NCBI GenBank assembly: GCA_900473915.1
Contig: UCNG01000010.1
Location: forward strand, 124,001 to 188,000
Direction: 5' to 3'
DNA: 64,000 bases
Source: Hyphomicrobiales bacterium
GTDB lineage: Bacteria; Pseudomonadota; Alphaproteobacteria; Rhizobiales; Rhizobiaceae
A model generated the notes under the pieces. That model searched no databases. It was not told the origin of the DNA and was given only the letters and a program-made list of their open reading frames with translations. The first letter of the stretch is position 1, and each line of letters starts with the position of its first letter. Position numbers and translations under genes: made by a program. This document shows, one piece after another, positions 9,550 through 26,064 of this stretch.

Positions 9550-11202
9550 ATGCTCCGTATTGCCGTTGCGCAGCTCAATCCCGTCATGGGCGATATCGCC
9601 GGAAACCTGGCCAAGGCACGCGCGGCGCGCGCTGAAGCCGCCAGGATGCAGGCCGATCTCATTTTGTTTACAGAACTGTTCATCTCCGGTTACCCACCGG
9701 AAGATCTGGTTTTAAAACCGTCCTTTCTTGCGGCGTGCGAAAAGGCCGTTCAGGAGCTCGCAAGTGATACCGCCGACGGCGGTCCAGGTGTTATCATCGG
9801 TACGCCCCTTAAGCGTGAGAGCGGACTGCATAACTCTATCGCGGTTCTGGACGCGGGGGAGGTGATTGCCGAACGGTTTAAGGTTGATCTGCCGAATTAT
9901 GGCGAGTTTGATGAGAAGCGCGTATTTGAGGCAGGTCCGATGCCGGGACCGATCAATTTCCGCGGTGTCCGCATCGGCATTCCCATCTGTGAAGATATTT
10001 GGGGCGATCTCGGTGTCGCCGAAACGCTGGCGGAGAGTGGAGCAGAAATTTTACTCGTGCCGAACGGTTCGCCCTATCACCGTGCGAAGATGGACCGACG
10101 GCATCAGGTTGTCCTGAAACAGGTAATCGAAACCGAACTGCCGATGGTTTATGCTAATCAGGTTGGCGGACAGGATGAACTGGTATTCGATGGCGGTTCG
10201 TTCGCGTTCAATGCCGACCGCTCGCTCTGTCTGCAAATGCCGCAGTTCGCGGAACAGATTTCGCTGACCATTTGGAACAAAGAGAATGATGGCTGGCGCT
10301 GCGAAGAAGGGGAGAAGGCCATTCTTCCAGAAGGGCTCGAAGCCGATTATTCAGCCTGCATGCTGGGCTTGCGTGACTATGTGAACAAGAACGGTTTCAA
10401 GGATGTCGTGCTCGGACTCTCGGGCGGCATTGATTCGGCAATCTGTGCGGCCTTGGGCGTCGACGCCTTGGGCAAGGACCGCGTTCGCTGCATCATGCTG
10501 CCTTACCGCTACACCTCCGACGAGTCGCTGAAAGATGCCGCTGACTGTGCAAAGGCGCTCGGTGTTCGATACGATATTGTTCCAATCGCCGCACCGGTTG
10601 AGGGCTTTCTTGAAGCGCTGCATCCGCTGTTTTCGGGAACCGAGAGTGGTGTTACCGAAGAAAACCTGCAGAGCCGTGCACGCGGAACCATTCTGATGGC
10701 GGTTTCGAACAAGTTCGGTTCGATGGTTGTCACTACAGGCAATAAGTCTGAAATGTCGGTGGGCTATGCGACGCTTTACGGCGACATGAATGGCGGGTTC
10801 AATCCGATCAAGGATGTCTACAAGATGCAAGTCTATGCGATGTCCGAATGGCGTAACAGCCATGTACCGAATGGCGCGCTTGGCCCATCGGGTGAAGTAA
10901 TCCCCCACAACATCATTTCCAAGGCTCCATCCGCTGAGCTGCGCGAAAACCAAACGGATCAGGACAGCTTGCCTCCCTATCCGGTTCTGGACGATATCCT
11001 TGAATGCCTCGTCGAAAATGAAATGAGCAACACCGAGATTGCTGCTCGCGGTTATCCGCTCGAAACGGTTCAACGGATAGAGCATCTGCTTTATCTGGCT
11101 GAATATAAGCGCCGACAATCGGCACCTGGTGTCAAAATTACCAAGAAGAATTTCGGACGCGATCGCCGCTACCCTATAACGAACCGCTTCCGCGACCGCT
11201 GA
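9550..11202 (+). CDS. nadE: Glutamine-dependent NAD(+) synthetase
   Basis: The last step of NAD biosynthesis: amidates nicotinate adenine dinucleotide using glutamine. The 550-residue protein joins a nitrilase-type glutaminase domain (about 1-265; catalytic Glu in [14 protein letters not shown], Lys in [11 protein letters not shown], Cys in [10 protein letters not shown]) to a synthetase domain with the ATP pyrophosphatase loop LSGGIDSA. The start [11 protein letters not shown] at 9550 is the conserved N-terminus; an ATG at 9523 would add nine residues and cannot be excluded, since neither has a strong ribosome site. gltX follows after 11 nt, suggesting a nadE-gltX transcript. Confidence 0.95.
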
Positions 11203-11213
11203 AAGACATTGAA

Positions 11214-12587
11214 ATGACCGTAATCGTTCGTTTTGCTCCGTCGCCGACGGGCTATATTCATATTGGCAACACGCGCACGGCGCTTTCAAATTGGCTTTTC
11301 GCTCAAAAAAATGGCGGCAAGTTCATACTGCGCTATGACGATACCGATGTTGAGCGATCCAGGGAAGAGTACGCACAGGCAATTGCCGTCGATCTCGATT
11401 GGCTCGGTGTCAAACCTGATCGTGTCGAATATCAATCGAAGCGTTTCGATGTTTATGCCAAGGCAGTGGAGAAGCTCAAACAGGCTGGCCTGCTCTATGC
11501 TTGTTATGAAACGGCTGAAGAACTGGAGCGGCGCCGCAAGTTGCGTCTCGCACGCCGGCTTCCGCCGGTATATGGCCGTGAAGGCTTAAAACTGACTGAC
11601 GAAGAGAAAGCAGCCTTTGAAGCCGAAGGGCGCAAGCCGCACTGGCGTTTCCTGCTACCCAATTTTGATGTCGATCCCTTTAACACCAAGCGTACCGAGG
11701 TACATTGGGACGATCTGGTTCGCGGCCCGCAAACTGTTGATCTGGCTTCAATGTCCGATCCGGTGCTGGTGCGTGAGGATGGCACATATCTCTATACCCT
11801 CCCGTCCGTGGTGGACGATATAGATCTCGGTGTTACGCATATTATTCGTGGCGATGACCATGTGACGAATACGGGTGTACAGATCGCAATTTTCGAAGCG
11901 TTAGGAGCCAAGGCGCCAGTTTTTGGGCACCATAATCTGCTGACGACGATTTCGGGCGAGGGGCTTTCAAAGCGAACCGGCGCTCTATCTGTCGGCTCAC
12001 TGCGCGAAGCAGGTTTTGAGCCTATGGCAGTCGCCTCACTGGCGATTCTGATCGGTACGTCGGAAAGTGTTTCGGCAGAACCCAATATGGCAAGTCTTGC
12101 CGAGCATTTTGATCTGGCCTCGATATCGAAGTCTTCGGCTAAATTTGATCCCGCAGAGTTGGATACGCTCAACCGCGCCCTGCTGCACGCGATGTCATTT
12201 TCAGAAGCCGAGCCGCGCCTGGCAGCCTTTGGCATTTCCGGCGACAAGGCCGAACCATTCTGGATGGCGGTACGGGGAAATCTCGAACGTTTCAAGGATG
12301 TGGTTCATTGGTGGTCTATCGTTGACGGTGAACTACCTGAAATGCCGGACCTGTCTGAAGAAGATCGTGCTTTCCTGCGCGAAGCATTCACCCTTCTGCC
12401 ACCTGCTCCTTGGGATCATCAAACCTGGAAAAGCTGGACGGAGGCAGTAAAGGCTGCAACGGGACGCAAGGGCAAGAACCTATTCATGCCCCTGCGGTTG
12501 GCGCTTACGGGGCAGGTGCATGGGCCGGAGCTGGCTGACCTGCTAGTGCTGATTGGTCCGGAAAGAAGTCTGAGCCGACGACCCTGA
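11214..12587 (+). CDS. gltX: Glutamyl-tRNA synthetase
   Basis: Charges tRNA-Glu. The 457-residue class I synthetase has the HIGH-type motif in [15 protein letters not shown] and a KMSKS-type GEGLSKRTG. This is the shorter of the two GltX forms usual in this group, so a second gltX probably lies elsewhere; whether this copy charges tRNA-Glu or tRNA-Gln is not decidable here. It starts 11 nt after nadE. Its last 83 nt overlap the antisense 3' end of the lipoprotein gene at 12505-13239. Confidence 0.95.
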
Positions 12588-16820: not shown

Positions 16821-17975
16821 TTATTCATGAGGTGGAGTGAATTCCGCTCTCGGTCGTATCAGTGATCCATTGTCCACCTGTTCCAGCGCGTGGGCAAGCC
16901 AACCTGCGATGCGCGCGAGCGCAAACAGAAGCAGTGGTGCCTCGGCTGGCAGTTCATATAGTTCAGTCACTGCGGCGAGCGCGAAATCAATATTCGGTTT
17001 CTCTCCCAGGATGTCCGCAGCGCTTCGTTCCAAATCACGATAGATGGCGGGCAATTCCAGTTGTTCCAGCAAAGCGGAAGCGCGAACGTCTCCTGTTTCC
17101 CGGTAAAGGGGATGACCGAACAAATGAATTTGCGTGCCTTGTCTGAGCTGGTCTTTGATGGCGGCTTCGGGACCTATTTCCCGAGCTTGGGCAACAATAG
17201 CTGCTGCGGCCGTGGCTGCTCTGCCATGTCTGGGGCCGATCAATGTTGATAATCCGGCCAGTGTTGCTGCAGACAATGGAGCGCCTGTGGAGGCGGCGAC
17301 GCGGGTTGCGAATGCCGACGCGTTGAGTTCGTGGTCTGCCAGAAGCACGAGAATACGTCGAATAATATCGCTTGCCTGCGGCTTTTGCCAGACAGAAGCA
17401 ATACGCTCATGCATGGGCATATCGGATATAGATACGCCAAGAGCAGTATTGTGGAACAATTGTAGCAGACCGAAAGCCTCTTGCTGCAGGATTGCTGCGG
17501 AACGTCCGGAACTGGGCAGGTCGTTCGCTGCTCGGACGGCAAAGGTGGTGAACAGGCGTTCCAACGGTGCAGAGCATGGCTGCTGTCGACATAGCGGCAT
17601 CTCTCCGCGGGCACCGCCGCTATTGTCGAAATTCATCTGCCATAGCAGGGCGGCCACTTGTTCCAACGTTGCCGTTTCCGACAGCTCAGCCGCATCGCAG
17701 CCGCGATAGAGCAAACGGCCATCAATAATGGTCGAAATGCCGGAGCGCATGATCGGAAGCCCCCAGCGAATAGTGTCAGCAGCAACAGTACTATCTCTAT
17801 TGCGACCCGGACGTCTGCCGGCCAGACGATGAACGTCTTCTGATCGATAGAGGCTGCGTCTGGGATCATCGGGCTGCGGCTTGGAACGGATGCGACCACG
17901 ACTGACATTGGCATAAAGCGTCTGAGGCTTTGTCTGAAGAATGGATAGCGCTTCTTCCGCTGTAAGCCAGTTCAT
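16821..17975 (-). CDS. Citrate synthase-like protein with N-terminal helix-turn-helix domain
   Basis: A 384-residue fusion. Residues 1-55 (LTAEEALSILQ, LYANVSRGRI, SEDVHRLAGRR) resemble an excisionase/MerR-type DNA-binding helix-turn-helix with its wing. The rest is a citrate synthase fold that keeps the three catalytic positions: His in DHELNASAF, His in FGHPLYRETGDVRA, Asp in KPNIDFAL. It could be a citrate or 2-methylcitrate synthase that also binds DNA, or a regulator that uses the enzyme fold as a sensor for oxaloacetate or an acyl-CoA. It is transcribed divergently from a second citrate-synthase-like gene, the typical layout of a regulator and its target. GGGAG precedes the ATG. Confidence 0.85.
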   Translation of the reverse strand: MNWLTAEEALSILQTKPQTLYANVSRGRIRSKPQPDDPRRSLYRSEDVHRLAGRRPGRNRDSTVAADTIRWGLPIMRSGISTIIDGRLLYRGCDAAELSETATLEQVAALLWQMNFDNSGGARGEMPLCRQQPCSAPLERLFTTFAVRAANDLPSSGRSAAILQQEAFGLLQLFHNTALGVSISDMPMHERIASVWQKPQASDIIRRILVLLADHELNASAFATRVAASTGAPLSAATLAGLSTLIGPRHGRAATAAAAIVAQAREIGPEAAIKDQLRQGTQIHLFGHPLYRETGDVRASALLEQLELPAIYRDLERSAADILGEKPNIDFALAAVTELYELPAEAPLLLFALARIAGWLAHALEQVDNGSLIRPRAEFTPPHE

Positions 17976-18062
17976 TATTGCTCCCTACATTGATCGATTT
18001 CATCAAGATTGACGTCAACTATACTTGGAGAGAATGTCGAAAGGCAAACAAGGAGAATTACT
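17976..18062. promoter_or_regulatory. Divergent promoter region with TTGACGTCAA palindrome
   Basis: This 87-bp gap separates the two citrate-synthase-like genes. At 18009-18018 it holds the perfect 10-bp palindrome TTGACGTCAA, which also supplies a -35-like TTGACG for the right-hand gene. Its position between divergent genes makes it a good candidate operator for the HTH-citrate synthase protein. Confidence 0.4.
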
Positions 18063-19157
18063 ATGAATAGCGGACTTGAAGACGTGATCGCTGCCGAAAC
18101 CGTGCTGTCAGACGTCGATGGGCTTGCAGGCAGGCTGGTTATTCGCGGTCGATCGCTGGACGATCTGGTTCCGCACAGCAGCGTCGAAGATGGAATAGAA
18201 CTTCTATGGGACGGTTTTTTTGAAGGCCTCCCCACAGGAGCAGAACTTCAGCAGGCTCTGGGCGAAGCCCGTTTGCAGGTATTTCATCATACCGATGCGC
18301 TTGACGATGCATTGATGGAAATGTCTCCAATAGAAGCGCTGCGCGCATTGATGGCGCGCATTCCAGATGAAGACGACGTGACCGCCGCTTTGCATCTGAT
18401 GGCCGCACCGGCGGTTTTCACAACAGCCATTCTGCGCGCCCACAAGGGACGGCGGCCTATCCGTCCTGATCCGACGCTTCCGCACAGTGCGGACATACTT
18501 CGCATGATGAATGCGGCAATGCCCGATGAAGCAGAAGTTGCCGGGCTGGATACTTACCTTGTGACAGTTTGCGATCATGGATTGAATGCGTCGACCTTCG
18601 CCGCCCGCGTCGTGGCATCGACACGGGCTGGCCTGACCTCGTCTCTGCTTGCTGCGATCAGCGCATTGAAGGGACCGCTCCACGGTGGTGCTCCGGGACC
18701 GGTACTCGATATGCTCGATGCCATCGGCAGGCCCGCGAACGCCGAATGGTGGCTTGAATCAGCAATTGCCGATGGGGAACGGCTGATGGGGTTCGGTCAT
18801 CGGGTTTATCGGGTACGTGATCCACGTGCCGATGCCCTGAAAGGTGCTTTGAAGCGTATCGAATCCCTTGGGCATGAACGTGGAAAACACCGGGTTGAAT
18901 TGGCTGAGGCAGTTGAGAAAGCTGCCATAGCAGTTCTCAAGCGCCACAAGCCGGATCGGCCCCTCGAAACCAATGTCGAGTTCTATACCGCTCTTTTGCT
19001 TGAGCAACTGGGTTTCCCGCGTGAGGCCTTCACGTGTGTCTTTGCCATGGGGAGAACCATGGGGTGGATAGCTCACTGCCGGGAGCAGGCTGCAACGAAC
19101 AAGCTCATTCGTCCGCAGTCGCGTTATGTTGGCCCAAAGGTCGAACTCGTTGCTTGA
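18063..19157 (+). CDS. Citrate synthase/methylcitrate synthase-like protein
   Basis: A 364-residue citrate synthase-family protein without the DNA-binding domain. It has the first catalytic His in CDHGLNASTFAARV and the second in MGFGHRVYRVRDPRA; at the third position, normally Asp in an NVDFY motif, it reads NVEFY, so the general base is Glu. It is shorter than the main TCA-cycle enzyme (about 430 residues). The ATG at 18063 has AAGGAG upstream, preferred over an in-frame codon at 18009 inside the promoter palindrome. It may form a functional unit with the divergent fusion protein. Substrate specificity (acetyl-CoA, propionyl-CoA or other) is open. Confidence 0.85.
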   Translation: MNSGLEDVIAAETVLSDVDGLAGRLVIRGRSLDDLVPHSSVEDGIELLWDGFFEGLPTGAELQQALGEARLQVFHHTDALDDALMEMSPIEALRALMARIPDEDDVTAALHLMAAPAVFTTAILRAHKGRRPIRPDPTLPHSADILRMMNAAMPDEAEVAGLDTYLVTVCDHGLNASTFAARVVASTRAGLTSSLLAAISALKGPLHGGAPGPVLDMLDAIGRPANAEWWLESAIADGERLMGFGHRVYRVRDPRADALKGALKRIESLGHERGKHRVELAEAVEKAAIAVLKRHKPDRPLETNVEFYTALLLEQLGFPREAFTCVFAMGRTMGWIAHCREQAATNKLIRPQSRYVGPKVELVA

Positions 19158-19285: not shown

Positions 19286-19303
19286 CTGTCATATCGCTGT
19301 GAC
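19286..19303 (+). promoter_or_regulatory. Pho box (PhoB-binding site) of the plcP-agt operon
   Basis: CTGTCAT (19286-19292), four spacer bases, and CTGTGAC (19297-19303) form the two direct 7-mer repeats of a PhoB box at the canonical 11-bp period, with one mismatch in 14. It lies 54 nt before the ATG of the metallophosphoesterase gene. It predicts induction by phosphate starvation. Confidence 0.85.
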
Positions 19304-19356
19304 AGGAATCGGGTTTTCTGCGCCCAGATCAGGTTGCCATTGAAGGGGACAACCAA

Positions 19357-20223
19357 ATGAGCGCAGATGCTCCGCAGGCCAGAAAACTCCGGACGCTTTT
19401 CATTTCGGATGTGCATCTCGGTTCAAAAGCAGCACAGGCCGAACTGCTTCTGGATTTTCTCCGTTATCATGACGCGGAGACAATCTATCTTGTGGGCGAT
19501 ATTGTTGATGGCTGGCGTCTCCGGCGCAATTGGCATTGGCCGCAAGAGCACAACGACGTGGTCCAGAAACTGCTTCGCAAAAGCCGCAAGGGCGCCAATA
19601 TCATCTACATCGCTGGCAATCATGACGAGTTTCTGCGGAATTTCCAAGGGACGCATTTCGGCGGCATCGAGGTGATGAACCGGGCGATTCATGAAACGGC
19701 GGACGGTCGAAAATTTTTGGTTATCCATGGTGATCAGTTCGATGTGGTTGTTCGTAATGCCCGCTTCATTGCCTATCTGGGCGACTGGGCATATGACACC
19801 GCCATTTGGATAAACACGATTATGAGCCGTGTCCGCTCGCTTTTTGGGTTGCGCTACTGGTCATTTTCGGCCTGGGCGAAATTTCGCGTCAAAAAGGCGG
19901 TCAATTTCATCGGCCAATTCGAGAATGTGGTTTCAGAGGAGGCGCAGCGTATCGGCGTCGATGGAGTAATCTGCGGCCATATCCACCACGCGACGATCGA
20001 AAGCATGAACGGCGTCGAATATATCAATACGGGCGACTGGGTGGAAAGCTGCACGGCTGTAATCGAACATTTTGATGGTCGAATGGAGTTGATCGGATGG
20101 ACGGAGCGTCGTGACCGCCGCCCAATGACAGGAAACGTCAACTCCGGCAGCGAAGAGTACGACGAGGCGCAGGTAATCCATCTTCCGCGTCCCGCTCGCG
20201 AATTGGCAAACTTCAGCCGATGA
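19357..20223 (+). CDS. plcP: PlcP-type metallophosphoesterase (phosphate-starvation phospholipase C)
   Basis: A 288-residue calcineurin-like phosphoesterase with all metal-ligand motifs: SDVHLGS, VGDIVDGW, AGNHDEF, VIHGDQFD and CGHIHHA. By fold it resembles LpxH (UDP-2,3-diacylglucosamine hydrolase) and would often be annotated so. Two things argue for PlcP, which removes the headgroup from membrane phospholipids to give diacylglycerol: a near-perfect Pho box 54 nt upstream and a 4-nt ATGA overlap with a GT4 lipid glycosyltransferase, the plcP-agt order known from rhizobia, Agrobacterium and marine bacteria. No signal peptide is seen, consistent with a cytoplasmic, membrane-associated enzyme. 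Confidence 0.85.
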   Translation: MSADAPQARKLRTLFISDVHLGSKAAQAELLLDFLRYHDAETIYLVGDIVDGWRLRRNWHWPQEHNDVVQKLLRKSRKGANIIYIAGNHDEFLRNFQGTHFGGIEVMNRAIHETADGRKFLVIHGDQFDVVVRNARFIAYLGDWAYDTAIWINTIMSRVRSLFGLRYWSFSAWAKFRVKKAVNFIGQFENVVSEEAQRIGVDGVICGHIHHATIESMNGVEYINTGDWVESCTAVIEHFDGRMELIGWTERRDRRPMTGNVNSGSEEYDEAQVIHLPRPARELANFSR

Positions 20224-21281
20224 AGAAAATCGTCATCGTCTCAGACGCCTGGCATCCACAAGTCAACGGCGTTGTGCGCACGCTGACGAAATGCCGTGAT
20301 TTGATGATCGACCGGGGATATGATGTCACGGTTATATCTCCGCTTGATTATAGATCAGTACCCTGTCCGACCTACCCGGAAATCCGGCTCGCCTTGACCG
20401 CGACAAGCGCGCTTAAACGCCGCTTGAAAGCCTTGCAACCCGATTATGTGCATATCGCAACCGAAGGCCCGCTTGGATTCATGGCACGGCGCGCTTGTGT
20501 GAAAATGGGCTGGTCGTTCACGACCAGTTTTCACACACGTTTTCCCGAATATCTGCGGGAGCGTTTTCCTGTCCCAACCAGATGGACTTACGCATTCCTG
20601 CGGCATTTCCATAACGCGGCCCAGCATACGCTGGTACCGACGCAGTCCATTCTGGACGATCTCAAGGCGCGTGGCTTTACGCAATTGACCCTTTGGACGC
20701 GCGGTGTCGATCAGACGCTGTTTTATCCTCGGCCTGAAGTGCAAAAGGACTTGCCACGGCCGGTGTTCCTCTGCGTGGGACGCGTCGCTGCGGAAAAGAA
20801 CCTGCCAGCGTTTCTGGAACTGGATCTCCCCGGCACGAAACTGATCGTAGGAGATGGTCCCTCCCTCAACGATCTTCGGACCAGGTTTCCCAAAGCGGTG
20901 TTTATTGGGAAACGCGAAGGGGAAGAGCTCGCCAAAACTTACGCTGCAGCCGACGTCTTTGTCTTTCCCAGCCGGACGGACACGTTCGGTCTTGTTTTGC
21001 TTGAAGCGATAGCTTCCGGTCTTCCCGTTGCAGCCTATCCCGTGCCCGGATCACGCGATGTTGTCGGAATAACTGGCGCAGGTGTTCTTTCGGAAAATCT
21101 TGGGGGGGCGTGTCTGGCGGCTCTGGAAATGGAGCCGTTCGAGCCAGCGCACGTGCTCCGCCAATTCACCTGGGATGTTTGTGCCGACATATTCGAAGGA
21201 GCTCTCGCTCCGATCAATGGAATCGCAAGCGAGAGTTATCGACGTTCTGATCAGCCCCAAATGGCAGCTTCCGGCGGATAA
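20220..21281 (+). CDS. agt: GT4 diacylglycerol glycosyltransferase (Agt-like)
   Basis: A 353-residue GT-B glycosyltransferase of family 4. The N-terminal half starts with VSDAWHPQVNGVVRTL and contains TTSFHTRFPEYLRERF; the C-terminal nucleotide-sugar half has GRVAAEKNLPAF, VGDGPSLNDL and SRTDTFGLVLLEAIASGLPV. It is translationally coupled to plcP through ATGA. In relatives, Agt uses DAG released by PlcP and UDP-glucose, UDP-galactose or UDP-glucuronate to make glycolipids that replace phospholipids when phosphate is scarce. The sugar donor cannot be read from sequence. The last 31 nt overlap the 3' end of the convergent epimerase gene. Confidence 0.85.
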   Translation: MKKIVIVSDAWHPQVNGVVRTLTKCRDLMIDRGYDVTVISPLDYRSVPCPTYPEIRLALTATSALKRRLKALQPDYVHIATEGPLGFMARRACVKMGWSFTTSFHTRFPEYLRERFPVPTRWTYAFLRHFHNAAQHTLVPTQSILDDLKARGFTQLTLWTRGVDQTLFYPRPEVQKDLPRPVFLCVGRVAAEKNLPAFLELDLPGTKLIVGDGPSLNDLRTRFPKAVFIGKREGEELAKTYAAADVFVFPSRTDTFGLVLLEAIASGLPVAAYPVPGSRDVVGITGAGVLSENLGGACLAALEMEPFEPAHVLRQFTWDVCADIFEGALAPINGIASESYRRSDQPQMAASGG

Positions 21282-22231
21282 ACCAGAGCGCCTTCGTAAC
21301 GCAGCCCAGGGTCGCGGTCATGGGCAAGCAGCAGGGGTCCATCAAGGTCGACCACGTCGGCTTTCTGGGCAAGCAGCACCGCAGGCGCCATGCCGAGCGA
21401 CGTCCCAACCATGCAGCCGACCATGATCTGAAGGCCGAGGTCGATTGCCTTGTCTCGCATGAGAAGACCTTCGGTCAGCCCGCCCGCTTTGTCGAGCTTG
21501 ATATTGACTGCATCATAGCGCTTGGCCAGTTCCTCAAGGCCAATCGACGTGTGAACGCTTTCATCAGCGCAGATAATGACAGGCCGTTCGATTTCACTGA
21601 GAATATGATCGTTATTTGCGGGAAGGGGCTGTTCGATAAGAACAACACCTGCGTCCGCTGCCGCACGCATGTTCAGGGCAATATTGTCGGCTGTCCAGCC
21701 CTCGTTCGCATCGATAATGATGCGGCTGTTCGGCGCCGCGCAGGTGACCGCGTGGATTTTTTCGATATCGTTCTCTCCGCCCATTTTCACTTTGATGAGA
21801 GGGTAATGAGCGACTTTCGCAGCCGATTCCGCCATTTCGGAAGGTGTGCCGAGCGAGACGGTGATTGCGGTTTCAAGCGGGCGGGTTGGTGTGCCCAGCA
21901 TCTCGGCAACACTTTTCCCCGTTTCCTTGGCTTCAAGGTCCCATAAAGCGCAATCGACCGCATTGCGGGCGGCACCTGCTGGCATCAGATTTTGAATATC
22001 CTGTCGGGTCGCGCCGTTCTCGATGGCTGAGCGGGCAGCCTCGATCTGTGCGCTCACGCTTTCGATGCTCTCGCCGTAGCGTGCATAGGGAACGCATTCG
22101 CCGCGTCCCTGATGGGTACCGTTGCCGATCACACACACAACAACGGCAGCTTCCGTCTTGGAGCCTCTGGAGATTGTGAATTTTCCGGCGATGGGATAGC
22201 GTTCGACAATGATATTCAAGGTATTGTGCAT
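21251..22231 (-). CDS. dgcA: Enolase-superfamily epimerase (DgcA / dipeptide epimerase type)
   Basis: A 326-residue muconate-lactonizing-subgroup enzyme. The catalytic lysine pair and metal ligands are visible: KxK in IKVKMG, Asp in IIIDANEGW, Glu in LIEQPLP, Asp in CADESV, and the second base Lys in VNIKLDKAGGL. Homologues are L-Ala-D/L-Glu epimerases of murein-peptide recycling or, in rhizobia, N-acetyl-D-glutamate racemase DgcA. The partner DgcN is not beside it, so both readings stay open. The frame is open to 22462 but MHNTLNIIVERYPIAGKF at 22231, with AGAGGG upstream, is the conserved start. It is divergent from mlaE by 60 nt. Confidence 0.85.
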   Translation of the reverse strand: MHNTLNIIVERYPIAGKFTISRGSKTEAAVVVCVIGNGTHQGRGECVPYARYGESIESVSAQIEAARSAIENGATRQDIQNLMPAGAARNAVDCALWDLEAKETGKSVAEMLGTPTRPLETAITVSLGTPSEMAESAAKVAHYPLIKVKMGGENDIEKIHAVTCAAPNSRIIIDANEGWTADNIALNMRAAADAGVVLIEQPLPANNDHILSEIERPVIICADESVHTSIGLEELAKRYDAVNIKLDKAGGLTEGLLMRDKAIDLGLQIMVGCMVGTSLGMAPAVLLAQKADVVDLDGPLLLAHDRDPGLRYEGALVYPPEAAIWG

Positions 22232-22291
22232 AGAGATGCCCTCTGGGACGCAGTATTTCGGTCGTTCAACGACTCGTATATGAGGTAGGCC

Positions 22292-23467
22292 ATGTTGACC
22301 GACACTGCCGACAAAGCAAGAGCTACCCATAATTCTGCGCCGAAGATTGATCTGGTGGAGGAGGATGGCGCGCGTCGTATCCAACTGAGTGGTCGCTGGG
22401 TGTCGCAAAGTGTCAATTTTGTCGACGACAGGATGCGCAATCTCGAGAAAACAGAAGGTCACAAAGCAACGATCATTGATGTTTCTGGCGTATCCAGTCT
22501 CGATACGGCAGGCGCTTGGCTGCTTGAACGCCTGCGGCAGCGCCTCGCCGCACGGAAAGTGGAAGTTGAGTTGGAAGGCGTACGACAGTCCTGGCTTCCT
22601 CTGATGGAGGAAGTGGGGCAGGCCGTCGAGCGCACCCTGGATATCCCACGCCAGAAGAAGCCGTTCTTCTTAATTTCATTTCTGGCCGCGCTTGGCGGCG
22701 GCGTTGTTTCCGTGGGTAGTGACTTCAAGATGGCGATGCACATTCTTGGGGCCACCATCCGCGGAGCTCAATTGAAATATGGGCGCGGTAGCGGCATTCC
22801 CTTCGCCGCGATTGTCACGCAGATGGATCGCATGGGCGTGGGTGCGATTCCCATCATCATCCTGATGTCGACGATTGTTGGAGCGATCATTGCCCAGCAG
22901 GGTGCGTTTCAGCTGCGTTATTTCGGCGCCGAGATCTTCGTTGTCGATCTGGTGGGCATTCTGGTCTTGCGTGAACTCGGAGTGCTTCTGACGGCTATTA
23001 TGATTGCCGGTCGTTCCGGCAGTGCGATCACGGCTGAAATCGGTTCCATGAAAATGCGCGAGGAAACCGATGCTCTCACCGTGATCGGTCTCAATCCGGT
23101 GGGCGTTCTGGTCTTTCCACGTCTTGTGGCGCTGGTTCTGATCCTGCCATTGCTTACCATCATTTCCGATCTCGCTGCGTTAATCGGGGCAGGCGGCGTC
23201 GCCTGGTTTTATTCCAATATTTCACCTGATGCTTTCATCAGCCGTTTGCACGATGCAGTCGCGTTGAACACTTACTTTGCAGGGCTTATCAAGGCTCCTT
23301 TCATGGCCATGATCATTGGGATTCTCGCTTCGGTAGAAGGCATGAAGGTAGGCGGAAGTGCGGAATCATTGGGCCGCCGCGTTACCGCTTCCGTTGTGAA
23401 GGCAATTTTCGTAGTTATTGTCGTGGATGGTTTGTTTGCCATGTTCTATGCGGCAATTGATTTTTAG
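22292..23467 (+). CDS. mlaE: MlaE-type lipid ABC transporter permease with N-terminal STAS domain
   Basis: The inner-membrane permease of the Mla pathway, which keeps phospholipids out of the outer leaflet of the outer membrane. In this 391-residue form an N-terminal STAS domain (about 15-110; DVSGVSSLDTAGAWLLERL) is fused to the MlaE permease (about 150-390; AAIVTQMDRMGVGAIPIIILMSTIVG). The fusion would replace the separate STAS protein MlaB of enterobacteria. It is the first gene of mlaE-mlaF-mlaD-lipoprotein, with GAGG before the ATG. Confidence 0.93.
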   Translation: MLTDTADKARATHNSAPKIDLVEEDGARRIQLSGRWVSQSVNFVDDRMRNLEKTEGHKATIIDVSGVSSLDTAGAWLLERLRQRLAARKVEVELEGVRQSWLPLMEEVGQAVERTLDIPRQKKPFFLISFLAALGGGVVSVGSDFKMAMHILGATIRGAQLKYGRGSGIPFAAIVTQMDRMGVGAIPIIILMSTIVGAIIAQQGAFQLRYFGAEIFVVDLVGILVLRELGVLLTAIMIAGRSGSAITAEIGSMKMREETDALTVIGLNPVGVLVFPRLVALVLILPLLTIISDLAALIGAGGVAWFYSNISPDAFISRLHDAVALNTYFAGLIKAPFMAMIIGILASVEGMKVGGSAESLGRRVTASVVKAIFVVIVVDGLFAMFYAAIDF

Positions 23468-23578
23468 ATATTGCTTATGCTCCTTGTTTTTAATGGGCTC
23501 TTTGAGACACAGTTGCACAGAAAATTGACCCTAAGATTGTGTTCGGCGGTTCAGTCGGAAGCCAAGCTCGGTTAAAGA

Positions 23579-24439
23579 ATGATTATGGAGAACGGCATCG
23601 ACCATCAGCTGCAACCGCAGGGCGAAGTTACTCAAACGGCCGTGCCGATGATCTCGGTGCGCGACGTGACGGTATCGTTCGGACGTCAAACGGTGCTCGA
23701 TAAGTTGTCTCTTGAGATTTACCGTGGTGAGGTCCTCGGTTTTATCGGCCCTTCGGGTTCGGGTAAATCTGTTCTGATGCGAACCATTCTTGGTCTCAAT
23801 AAAAAGCAGTCCGGCGAGATCGAGATTATAGGTCGCAATATCGATCAGTTGAATGAGCTGGAAAAGATGGCCATCGATATGCGTATGGGCGTTCTGTTCC
23901 AGCACGGAGCTTTGTTTTCCGCGTTGAATGTTCTTGAAAACATTCAGGTTCCGATGCGCGAATATCTCGACCTGTCGCCTAAGCTGATGGACGAACTGGC
24001 GCGATTGAAGATTGATTTGGTCGGCCTGAAGCCGGATACGGCAGAAAAATTTCCGTCCGAACTCTCCGGTGGCATGATCAAGCGCGCTGCGCTGGCACGT
24101 GCGCTGGCCTTGGACCCCGATATTCTTTTTCTTGATGAACCGACCTCGGGACTCGATCCGATCGGTGCAGCGGAGTTCGATGACCTGATCGCCAACCTGC
24201 GGGATACGATGGGGTTGACCGTCTATATGGTCACCCATGATCTCGATAGTCTTTTTGCGATTTGCGACCGGATCGCTGTTCTTGGAGGCAAGAAAGTGCT
24301 CGTCAGCGGCACCATTGAAGACATGCTGACGGTGGACGATCCGTGGGTTAAATCCTATTTTCGGGGCAAGCGGGCGCGCCAGATCGACCCGTCAGCGCCC
24401 ACGCGACGGCGGCCTGGCAGCCGCTTGCAGACTGGATAA
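23579..24439 (+). CDS. mlaF: MlaF-type ABC transporter ATP-binding protein
   Basis: The 286-residue ATPase that drives the Mla complex: Walker A GPSGSGKS, signature LSGGMIKRAALARAL, Walker B DPDILFLDEPTSGLD, and the switch His in MVTHD. The N-terminus has about 25 non-core residues; ATGs occur at 23579 and 23585. It lies 111 nt after mlaE and 3 nt before mlaD. The basic, proline-containing tail (about 262-286) is longer than in E. coli. Confidence 0.93.
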   Translation: MIMENGIDHQLQPQGEVTQTAVPMISVRDVTVSFGRQTVLDKLSLEIYRGEVLGFIGPSGSGKSVLMRTILGLNKKQSGEIEIIGRNIDQLNELEKMAIDMRMGVLFQHGALFSALNVLENIQVPMREYLDLSPKLMDELARLKIDLVGLKPDTAEKFPSELSGGMIKRAALARALALDPDILFLDEPTSGLDPIGAAEFDDLIANLRDTMGLTVYMVTHDLDSLFAICDRIAVLGGKKVLVSGTIEDMLTVDDPWVKSYFRGKRARQIDPSAPTRRRPGSRLQTG

Positions 24440-24442
24440 AAT

Positions 24443-25438
24443 ATGGAAACTAAAGCCAATTACGTACTGGTGGGTGTCTTCACGCTGATCGTCAGCCTCT
24501 TGGCTTTCGCTTTCGTGTTCTGGATCGCCCGTTTCGGAGAAGCACGCGATTCTCTGGAACTCGATGTTCGTATCCCAGGCTCCGTTACGGGTCTTTCAAT
24601 TGGAAGTCAGGTCCTGTTCAACGGCATCAAGGTTGGTGATGTTCGGGCGCTGCGTCTCGATCCCACCAATCCGGAAATGGTGATCGTAAAAACGCGGGTC
24701 AACGCGACAACACCCATTACTCGTTCGACCACGGCAACCCTTGGGTTTCAAGGGCTGACGGGGCTCGCTTATATCGAGCTGAAGGGCGGCCGCCTTGATG
24801 AACCCAATCTGCTGACAGAAGCCGAGAAGGGCGAAACGGTTGCCCGTATCGACGCCGATCCATCTTCAATCAACAATCTTCTCGCCACCGCGCAGGACAT
24901 TGCGGCGCGCGCAAATTCGGTACTCAGTCAGCTGGAAGGCTTCGTGAAAGATGCTCGCGGACCGCTGACGGATACGATCAATAATACGAAGACTTTCACT
25001 GACGCGCTGGCGAAGAACGCCAACATCGTTGAGGAGCTTGGCAAGAACACTGGGAATATCAATCAGATTGTCACGGATGCGAAGGACATGATGGCTCGTC
25101 TGAATGCCGCTTCCGGGCGCGTCGATGCTATCCTGGCAAAAACAGACAGGCTTCTGTCGAGTGACGATAAGGACGGCGTTGTCGCGCAGGCAAAGGCAAC
25201 ATTGGAGTCCATCCGCCAGACATCTGACAATCTCGATAAACGACTGGGTCCGATCGCGGACAATCTTCAGCGTTTCTCCGGGCAGGGTTTGCGTGATGTG
25301 CAATCCGTGGTGGTGGATAGCCGCCGGTCCATTCAACGTATAGAACAGGCAATTACCGATCTTGAGCGCAATCCTCAACGCCTCATTTTTGGTGGCAAGG
25401 GGAATGTACCCCAGTATGACGGGAGGACGCGTCATTGA
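24443..25438 (+). CDS. mlaD: MlaD-type MCE-domain protein
   Basis: A substrate-binding subunit anchored in the inner membrane: one N-terminal transmembrane helix (YVLVGVFTLIVSLLAFAFVFW), an MCE domain (about 40-120, with TGLSIGSQVLFNGIKVGDV and LGFQGLTGLAYIEL), then a long helical region predicted from heptad-like Asn/Leu/Ile spacing. At 331 residues it is longer than enterobacterial MlaD (about 180), as usual in alphaproteobacteria. Its stop overlaps the TTG start of the following lipoprotein gene. Confidence 0.93.
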   Translation: METKANYVLVGVFTLIVSLLAFAFVFWIARFGEARDSLELDVRIPGSVTGLSIGSQVLFNGIKVGDVRALRLDPTNPEMVIVKTRVNATTPITRSTTATLGFQGLTGLAYIELKGGRLDEPNLLTEAEKGETVARIDADPSSINNLLATAQDIAARANSVLSQLEGFVKDARGPLTDTINNTKTFTDALAKNANIVEELGKNTGNINQIVTDAKDMMARLNAASGRVDAILAKTDRLLSSDDKDGVVAQAKATLESIRQTSDNLDKRLGPIADNLQRFSGQGLRDVQSVVVDSRRSIQRIEQAITDLERNPQRLIFGGKGNVPQYDGRTRH

Positions 25439-26064
25439 TTTCCAAAGCCAGCTTTATTGACATGAAATCATATCGCACTCTTCGTCGTACAGCTTCAGCT
25501 TCTATCCTCCTCGGCATATTTCTTGCGGGTTGTGGGACAACAACGCCGCTCGATACTTTCAATCTCTCAGCACCGCAGCCCGGCGTGTCAGCGCCGAGCC
25601 GAAAGAATACGCAGTTGCTGGTTCCGACACCAAGCGCACTCAAGGCCCTTGATAGCGAGAATATCGTGGTAAGCTCTGCTCCGGGTTCCATTGAGTATCT
25701 GAAGGGTGCTCAATGGGGCGACAGGCTGACCAATATCGTGCAGTCACGTCTGGTACAGGCTTATGAGAATACCGGTGTGTTCGGCGGCATTGGCCGTCCA
25801 GGAGATGGGTTGGCAATCAATTATCAGATACTCACCGATCTGCGTATGTTCGGCATTCAGGCCTATGCCTCACCAAAGCTGGCAGTGGTCGAACTGGCCG
25901 TCAGGCTGATGAACGACAAGACTGGGGAGGTACGTGCGACCCGCGTGTTCCGGACAGCCATTCCTGTGAGCGGCGCGACAAACGCTGCCTATGTGAAGGC
26001 GCTTAATGCGGCTTTTGAACGGACTGCCAGCGAAATCGTGAGCTGGACGGTGGCGACGCTCTAA
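25435..26064 (+). CDS. ABC-type transport auxiliary lipoprotein
   Basis: A 209-residue lipoprotein of the ABC_trans_aux family, found with Mce/Mla operons and probably the outer-membrane-side partner. The lipobox is FLAGC. The core contains SSAPGSIEYLKGAQWGDRLTNIVQSRLVQAYENTG. The TTG at 25435 is used here because GGGAGG sits 8 nt upstream and it overlaps the mlaD stop; the ATG at 25462 lacks a ribosome site but would give a more ordinary signal peptide of 23 residues. It is the last gene of the operon, followed by a terminator. Confidence 0.9.
   Translation: MISKASFIDMKSYRTLRRTASASILLGIFLAGCGTTTPLDTFNLSAPQPGVSAPSRKNTQLLVPTPSALKALDSENIVVSSAPGSIEYLKGAQWGDRLTNIVQSRLVQAYENTGVFGGIGRPGDGLAINYQILTDLRMFGIQAYASPKLAVVELAVRLMNDKTGEVRATRVFRTAIPVSGATNAAYVKALNAAFERTASEIVSWTVATL

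What the first reader, a model, noticed from the sequence alone, without database searches (positions are those of the whole stretch)
19286..21281. Pho box in front of a coupled metallophosphoesterase-glycosyltransferase pair: a predicted PlcP-Agt phosphate-starvation lipid switch
Seen: CTGTCAT-N4-CTGTGAC 54 nt before the first ATG, a phosphoesterase with LpxH-like motifs, and an ATGA overlap with a GT4 glycosyltransferase. Known: in Sinorhizobium, Agrobacterium, Mesorhizobium and some marine bacteria PlcP turns phospholipids into DAG and Agt turns DAG into glycolipids under PhoB control. Inferred: this organism can replace phospholipid by glycolipid when starved of phosphate, and the gene is likely to be mislabelled as lpxH in automatic annotation.
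Basis: partly seen in the sequence, partly recalled or inferred. Interest (0 to 1): 0.75.

Follow-up and report, generated by a model that had tools for sequence, protein, structure and literature searches.

The report
Phosphate-starvation lipid-swap gene pair
Two coupled genes behind a predicted phosphate-starvation switch very probably let this bacterium, likely a relative of Brucella and Ochrobactrum, break down phospholipids and put sugar lipids in their place when phosphate runs out; the pathway is already known from other bacteria, so this is a well-supported but ordinary example.

Summary
A Pho box (CTGTCAT-N4-CTGTGAC, 19286-19303) lies 53 nt before a 288-aa metallophosphoesterase, which overlaps a 353-aa GT4 glycosyltransferase by ATGA. 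The box ranks first of 127,966 positions in the window with a matrix from plcP sites of other genera, and recurs in 30 of 30 upstream regions read of the closest genus.

The first protein is PlcP, not LpxH. It groups with S. meliloti PlcP, apart from six LpxH, scores 49 bits against an LpxH cut-off of 190, and the 35 genomes held of that genus have LpxI in 35 and an above-cut-off LpxH in none. The second is an Agt-type synthase, 50% identical to a P. aeruginosa Agt1 copy, with the residues found essential in SAR11 Agt.

Best reading: a PhoB-controlled plcP-agt operon making glucosyl- and/or glucuronosyl-diacylglycerol, a known pathway. New here is its presence in 34 of 35 genomes of a Brucella/Ochrobactrum-like genus (name inferred) and absence from one 3.3-Mb genome, where dgcA abuts maeB. 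The adjoining Mpc-type lipid transporter is interesting, unproven. No expression or lipid data exist.

The parts
19286..19303 (+). Pho box (predicted PhoB site) CTGTCATATCGCTGTGAC, 53 nt before the plcP ATG
19304..19356 (+). Leader between Pho box and ATG, largely conserved in the genus; GGGGA ribosome-binding-like stretch shortly before the ATG (by eye)
19357..20223 (+). plcP: calcineurin-like phosphoesterase, predicted phospholipase C-type enzyme giving diacylglycerol; residues D18, H20, D48, N88, H89, H124, H208, H210 fit the metal-site motifs of this superfamily (motifs recalled)
20220..21281 (+). agt: GT4 glycosyltransferase, predicted diacylglycerol glucosyl/glucuronosyl transferase, overlapping plcP by ATGA
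21251..22462 (-). dgcA-like racemase/dipeptide epimerase, convergent with agt; neighbour, not part of the operon
22292..26064 (+). mlaE (MlaB-like N-terminus), mlaF, mlaD (331 aa) and ABC_trans_aux lipoprotein: Mpc/Mla-type lipid transporter, neighbour without a Pho box of its own

Best explanation
A two-gene operon of the known PlcP-Agt lipid-remodelling pathway. When phosphate is scarce, PhoB binds the box at 19286-19303 and turns on plcP and the translationally coupled agt. PlcP cuts the head group off membrane phospholipids, giving diacylglycerol and a phospho-alcohol whose phosphate is reused. Agt adds glucose and/or glucuronic acid from a UDP-sugar to the diacylglycerol, so a sugar lipid replaces the lost phospholipid. 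Shown here: the box, its conservation, the operon anatomy, the family placement of both proteins and conserved catalytic residues. Inferred from characterised relatives: PhoB binding, enzyme activities, sugar identity, the physiological swap.
For: PlcP: 64% identity to S. meliloti PlcP; a tree of 42 proteins puts it in a 15-row set with S. meliloti PlcP (100/96) and splits all PlcP-like rows from six LpxH (100/99). LpxH model TIGR01854: window 49 bits, S. meliloti PlcP 39, P. aeruginosa PlcP 44, E. coli LpxH 389, cut-off 190. LpxI in 35 of 35 genomes, above-cut-off LpxH in 0 of 35. Agt: 50% to a P. aeruginosa pair's GT that fits PA3218/Agt1, which makes MGDG in E. coli (PMC8528852 passages); both UDP-sugar motifs and the 14 residues reported for SAR11 GTcp (mapped by motif context) conserved. 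Regulation. Coupling. Conservation: plcP 34 of 35 and agt 34 of 35 in the genus, both missing in the same genome; agt directly after plcP in 42 of 80 named relatives.
Against: No expression, binding or lipid data. The bare consensus word is not rare in 64 kb. The genus upstream regions are related, so conservation is partly descent, and the leader is conserved too. The second half-site is CTGTGAC, not CTGTCAT. In seven plasmid-collection relatives only 1 of 7 has a site with 3 or fewer mismatches; the S. meliloti and P. aeruginosa copies have 4. In 38 of 80 named relatives agt was not found directly after plcP (2 of the 80 have under 1,200 nt of room), so the pair is not obligatory. Glucose versus glucuronate cannot be told from sequence.
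Confidence: 0.9

Rival explanations
1. The phosphoesterase is a divergent LpxH (or backup LpxH) for lipid A and the glycosyltransferase an envelope sugar transferase.
For: LpxH is the best NCBIfam match, the 5 PDB sequences found at E 0.001 are LpxH, and public annotation of relatives says so.
Against: 49 bits against a cut-off of 190, and PlcPs of S. meliloti and P. aeruginosa score about the same; outside the LpxH clade; LpxI in 35 of 35 genomes, also in the one without plcP; Pho box in front.
Confidence: 0.03
2. PlcP-Agt is right, but the DAG goes mainly elsewhere (betaine or other lipids) and the GT acts on another acceptor such as a sphingolipid or phosphatidylglycerol.
For: A. tumefaciens Pgt, another GT, takes DAG or ceramide (PMC3972451 passage; GT21 by PMC8231724 passage); the best NCBIfam match of the GT is a GlcN-phosphatidylglycerol synthase, far below its cut-off (75.9 of 480).
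Against: Agt-type motifs and the GTcp residues conserved, including the R and W of the docked DAG site; nearer to plcP-linked GTs than to the PA0842-like Agt2; coupled to plcP.
Confidence: 0.06
3. The Pho box is a chance word and the operon is constitutive or controlled by something else.
For: 0.37 such words expected per 64 kb; conservation also covers the leader.
Against: Rank 1 of 127,966 by a plcP-site matrix, 30 of 30 genus regions with 25 of 30 at 52-55 nt, 4 of 5,000 shuffles of the intergenic region.
Confidence: 0.04

Closest known systems
P. aeruginosa PlcP-Agt1 operon (PA3219-PA3218, PMC8528852, passages read)
   Same: Gene order, four-base gene overlap in the record read (L007), PlcP 53% and GT 50% identical; the paper reports a Pho box with the same consensus
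   Different: P. aeruginosa has a second GT, Agt2 (PA0842); the window protein is 37.5% to an Agt2-like copy. An Agt2 was not sought as such in this genus; matches there other than agt and its pieces are 28-48% over part of the protein
S. meliloti PlcP (that L001 holds the characterised protein is recalled)
   Same: 64% identity; same neighbours maeB, dgcA, mlaE
   Different: An MFS transporter instead of agt follows; weaker consensus match, 4 mismatches
Methylosinus trichosporium plcP-agt (PMC9239053, passages read)
   Same: plcP directly followed by agt; the plcP-agt deletion makes no GADG
   Different: Its own sequence not compared here; a Methylocystis relative (L057) was
A. tumefaciens Agt (Atu2297) and SAR11 GTcp (PMC3972451, PMC8231724, passages read)
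   Same: GT4 MGlc-DAG and GlcA-DAG synthases; motifs GRVAxEKN and FPSxTDTFG present in the window protein
   Different: Direct alignment not made: their sequences were not at hand
Rhizobiales Pgt (GT21)
   Same: Phosphate-starvation glycolipids
   Different: Other GT family; a distant PlcP-like/'ceramide glucosyltransferase' pair exists in Pannonibacter and Fuscovulum

Membership tests
PlcP | Calcineurin-like phosphoesterase with intact metal-site motifs | tested here: met
   which residues bind metal is recalled
PlcP | Groups with characterised PlcP, outside LpxH | tested here: met
   100/99 for the split, with a long-branch warning for some LpxH and distant rows
PlcP | Hydrolyses phospholipid to DAG | not testable with these tools
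   no assay
LpxH | Score above TIGR01854 cut-off | tested here: not met
   49.2 of 190.35 bits; genus 0 of 35
LpxH | Only lipid A UDP-diacylglucosamine hydrolase in the genome | tested here: not met
   LpxI in 35 of 35 genomes of the closest genus; the window's own genome is not held
Agt (GT4 DAG glycosyltransferase) | GT4 domains, UDP-sugar motifs and the 14 residues reported for GTcp | tested here: met
   positions mapped by motif context, not by alignment to GTcp
Agt (GT4 DAG glycosyltransferase) | Nearer to plcP-linked Agt proteins (Agt1 type) than to Agt2 | tested here: met
   50.0% against 37.5% identity; in the tree deep forks are weak and the Agt2-like row is on a very long branch
Agt (GT4 DAG glycosyltransferase) | Makes MGDG or GADG | not testable with these tools
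   no assay
Pho regulon | Conserved Pho box upstream of the operon | tested here: met
Pho regulon | PhoB-dependent induction at low phosphate | not testable with these tools
   no expression data

The most novel reading that the evidence does not exclude
The maeB/plcP/agt/dgcA/mpcEFDA neighbourhood is a working phospholipid-recycling module: the Mpc (Mla-Pqi-like) transporter brings outer-membrane phospholipid back to the inner membrane, where PlcP and Agt convert it to sugar lipid under phosphate starvation. Against it: mlaE has no Pho box in the window, and the conserved order also includes genes with no evident link.
Probability: 0.08. Interest if true: 0.6.

Novelty: new member of a known kind. 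Interest (0 to 1): 0.3.

Why it matters
It adds a Brucella/Ochrobactrum-like genus to the bacteria predicted to swap phospholipid for sugar lipid. It also shows how automatic annotation hides PlcP under the lpxH name: in the 35 genomes held of this genus LpxI is always there and no above-cut-off LpxH is. One genome of the genus lacks the whole pair, which gives a natural comparison. Three searches of the open library for PlcP, glycolipid or non-phosphorus lipids together with Brucella or Ochrobactrum (15 of 17 papers listed, 15 of 282, 13 of 13) listed no paper whose title reports it; passages of two Brucella/Ochrobactrum lipid papers (PMC2691993, PMC3017556) did not show it either. That is not proof that none exists.

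Tried and rejected
Rejected: LpxH reading; a claim that classical Brucella lost the pair. The genome without it (G307) is 3.3 Mb, but its second lumazine synthase visibly differs from the PDB sequences 1t13/1di0 shown (recalled as Brucella abortus), so I do not equate them; classical Brucella was not tested. Breaks in plcP/agt of G306 and in agt of G301 are not treated as biology, because mlaE and LpxI are broken or cut there too. G192 has one TGA inside plcP; left as seen. Inference only: Brucella/Ochrobactrum-like, from the lumazine synthase of a genome of the closest genus (142 of 157 residues equal to 1t13 by my count) and the 331-aa MpcD-like protein. The rhizobial PhoB matrix paper (recalled) was sought and not listed, so I built a matrix from plcP upstream regions. 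The trees use hand-picked rows: 24 plcP relatives out of 80 named and 55 unnamed plcP loci held, and 27 GT rows. No structure prediction was run; it would hardly separate PlcP from LpxH better than the tree.

Full report
What is there. The coordinates are right. A citrate-synthase-like gene ends at 19157; the Pho-box-like direct repeat is at 19286-19303; plcP starts at 19357 after a GGGGA stretch; agt starts at 20220 inside the last codons of plcP and ends at 21281, running 31 bases into the convergent dgcA-like gene.

Is the Pho box more than chance? As a bare word, no: 0.37 sites with two or fewer mismatches are expected in 64 kb. By place and conservation, yes. In the 199-nt intergenic region only 4 of 5,000 dinucleotide shuffles do as well. 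Best site within 250 nt on either strand: of 78 named relatives whose upstream region could be read (80 given), 33 have three or fewer mismatches, against about 1% of letter-shuffled copies. Control upstream regions gave 1 of 33 (dgcA) and 0 of 41 (mlaF); maeB (8 of 27) and SDR (3 of 17) can share the intergenic region with plcP. In the genus 21 of 29 have three or fewer; controls there gave 5 of 5 (SDR, shared region), 1 of 8 (maeB), 0 of 10 (citB) and 0 of 2 (citA). Of seven plcP records from the plasmid collection only 1 of 7 reaches it (all). A matrix from 67 sites outside the genus, chosen by consensus match, ranks the window site first of 127,966. In the genus, 30 of 30 upstream regions hold the motif (window plus 29), 25 of them 52-55 nt before the ATG and 5 at 64-84. 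The half-sites are far more constant than the spacer, though the leader after the box is also well conserved.

What the first protein is. Its best named matches are LpxH models, but at 49 bits where the cut-off is 190. S. meliloti and P. aeruginosa PlcP score 39 and 44 against the same model, E. coli LpxH 389. A tree of 42 proteins splits LpxH (six proteins, plus one Bacteroides protein annotated so) from everything PlcP-like with 100/99 support; the window sits in a 15-row set with S. meliloti PlcP, 100/96. The program warns of long branches (Bacteroides, Pannonibacter, Acinetobacter, Parabacteroides, Teredinibacter), whose places are unsure; the window and S. meliloti rows are short. In the 35 genomes held of the closest genus, PlcP matches in 34, LpxI in 35, and above-cut-off LpxH in none. 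Lipid A therefore should not need this gene. In a wider family sample PlcP matches in 237 of 297 genomes.

What the second protein is. It is a GT4 enzyme. The passages read of PMC8231724 list 15 mutated positions of SAR11 GTcp; the 14 other than the dimer residue Leu56 have the same residue here, as do both UDP-sugar motifs. I mapped them by motif context because the GTcp sequence was not at hand. The protein is 50% identical to the GT of a P. aeruginosa plcP pair and 37.5% to a copy beside plcR that fits PA0842/Agt2. I equate those records with PA3219-PA3218 and PA0842 from their neighbours and from recall. Agt1 makes MGDG and Agt2 GADG in E. coli, while A. tumefaciens Agt and GTcp make both (PMC8528852, PMC3972451, PMC8231724; passages). 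I therefore predict MGDG and/or GADG without choosing. In the GT tree the window groups with Phyllobacterium and Paramesorhizobium Agt (100/100); deeper forks are weak and the Agt2-like row is on a very long branch.

Neighbourhood. Of 80 named loci, agt directly follows plcP (same strand, within 500 nt, 45% identity or more) in 42; of 74 with full flank, 38 have an Mla-type transporter within about 6 kb downstream; 11 have both, 28 agt only, 27 mla only, 8 neither. S. meliloti has an MFS transporter where the window has agt. The transporter beside the window's operon has the anatomy of Brucella abortus MpcEFDA: a MlaB-like start in the permease, a 331-aa MCE protein and an auxiliary lipoprotein (PMC12436622 passages). 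mlaE has no Pho box in the window (best site 6 mismatches), so a functional link to PlcP-Agt stays speculation.

The exception. One genome of the genus (G307, 3.3 Mb) has neither gene. There dgcA lies 119 nt from maeB, and no plcP, agt, SDR or citA match is found in the 19 kb read. LpxI is retained. The two genes leaving together fits a pair that works together, though one deletion of neighbours would do the same.

Limits. The claim is a family-based prediction with a strong regulatory footprint.

Noticed in passing
window 22292-26064: mlaE/mlaF/mlaD/ABC_trans_aux set with the anatomy of Brucella abortus mpcEFDA (MlaB-like N-terminus on the permease, 331-aa MCE protein).
   Followed up: partly
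window 16821-17975 and 18009-19157: Two divergent citrate-synthase-like genes; the first has an extra N-terminal stretch that looks like a helix-turn-helix (by eye; Pfam reports only citrate synthase). Such a pair lies beside plcP in several relatives (for example L091, L131-L138, L097) and not in others (for example L093, L140-L144).
   Followed up: partly
L171 (G307), about 11134-11254: dgcA and maeB adjacent, the SDR/citrate synthase/plcP/agt block absent in a 3.3-Mb genome.
   Followed up: partly
L001 4588-5811: In S. meliloti an MFS_1_like transporter occupies the slot after plcP that agt holds in the window.
   Followed up: partly
L008 1369-3410; L184 1111-3077: A divergent PlcP-like family (31-36% identity) directly followed by 'ceramide glucosyltransferase', also labelled as the LpxH product.
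   Followed up: no
L094 (G192): One in-frame TGA inside plcP of an otherwise normal plcP-agt locus; sequencing error or real loss not told apart.
   Followed up: no
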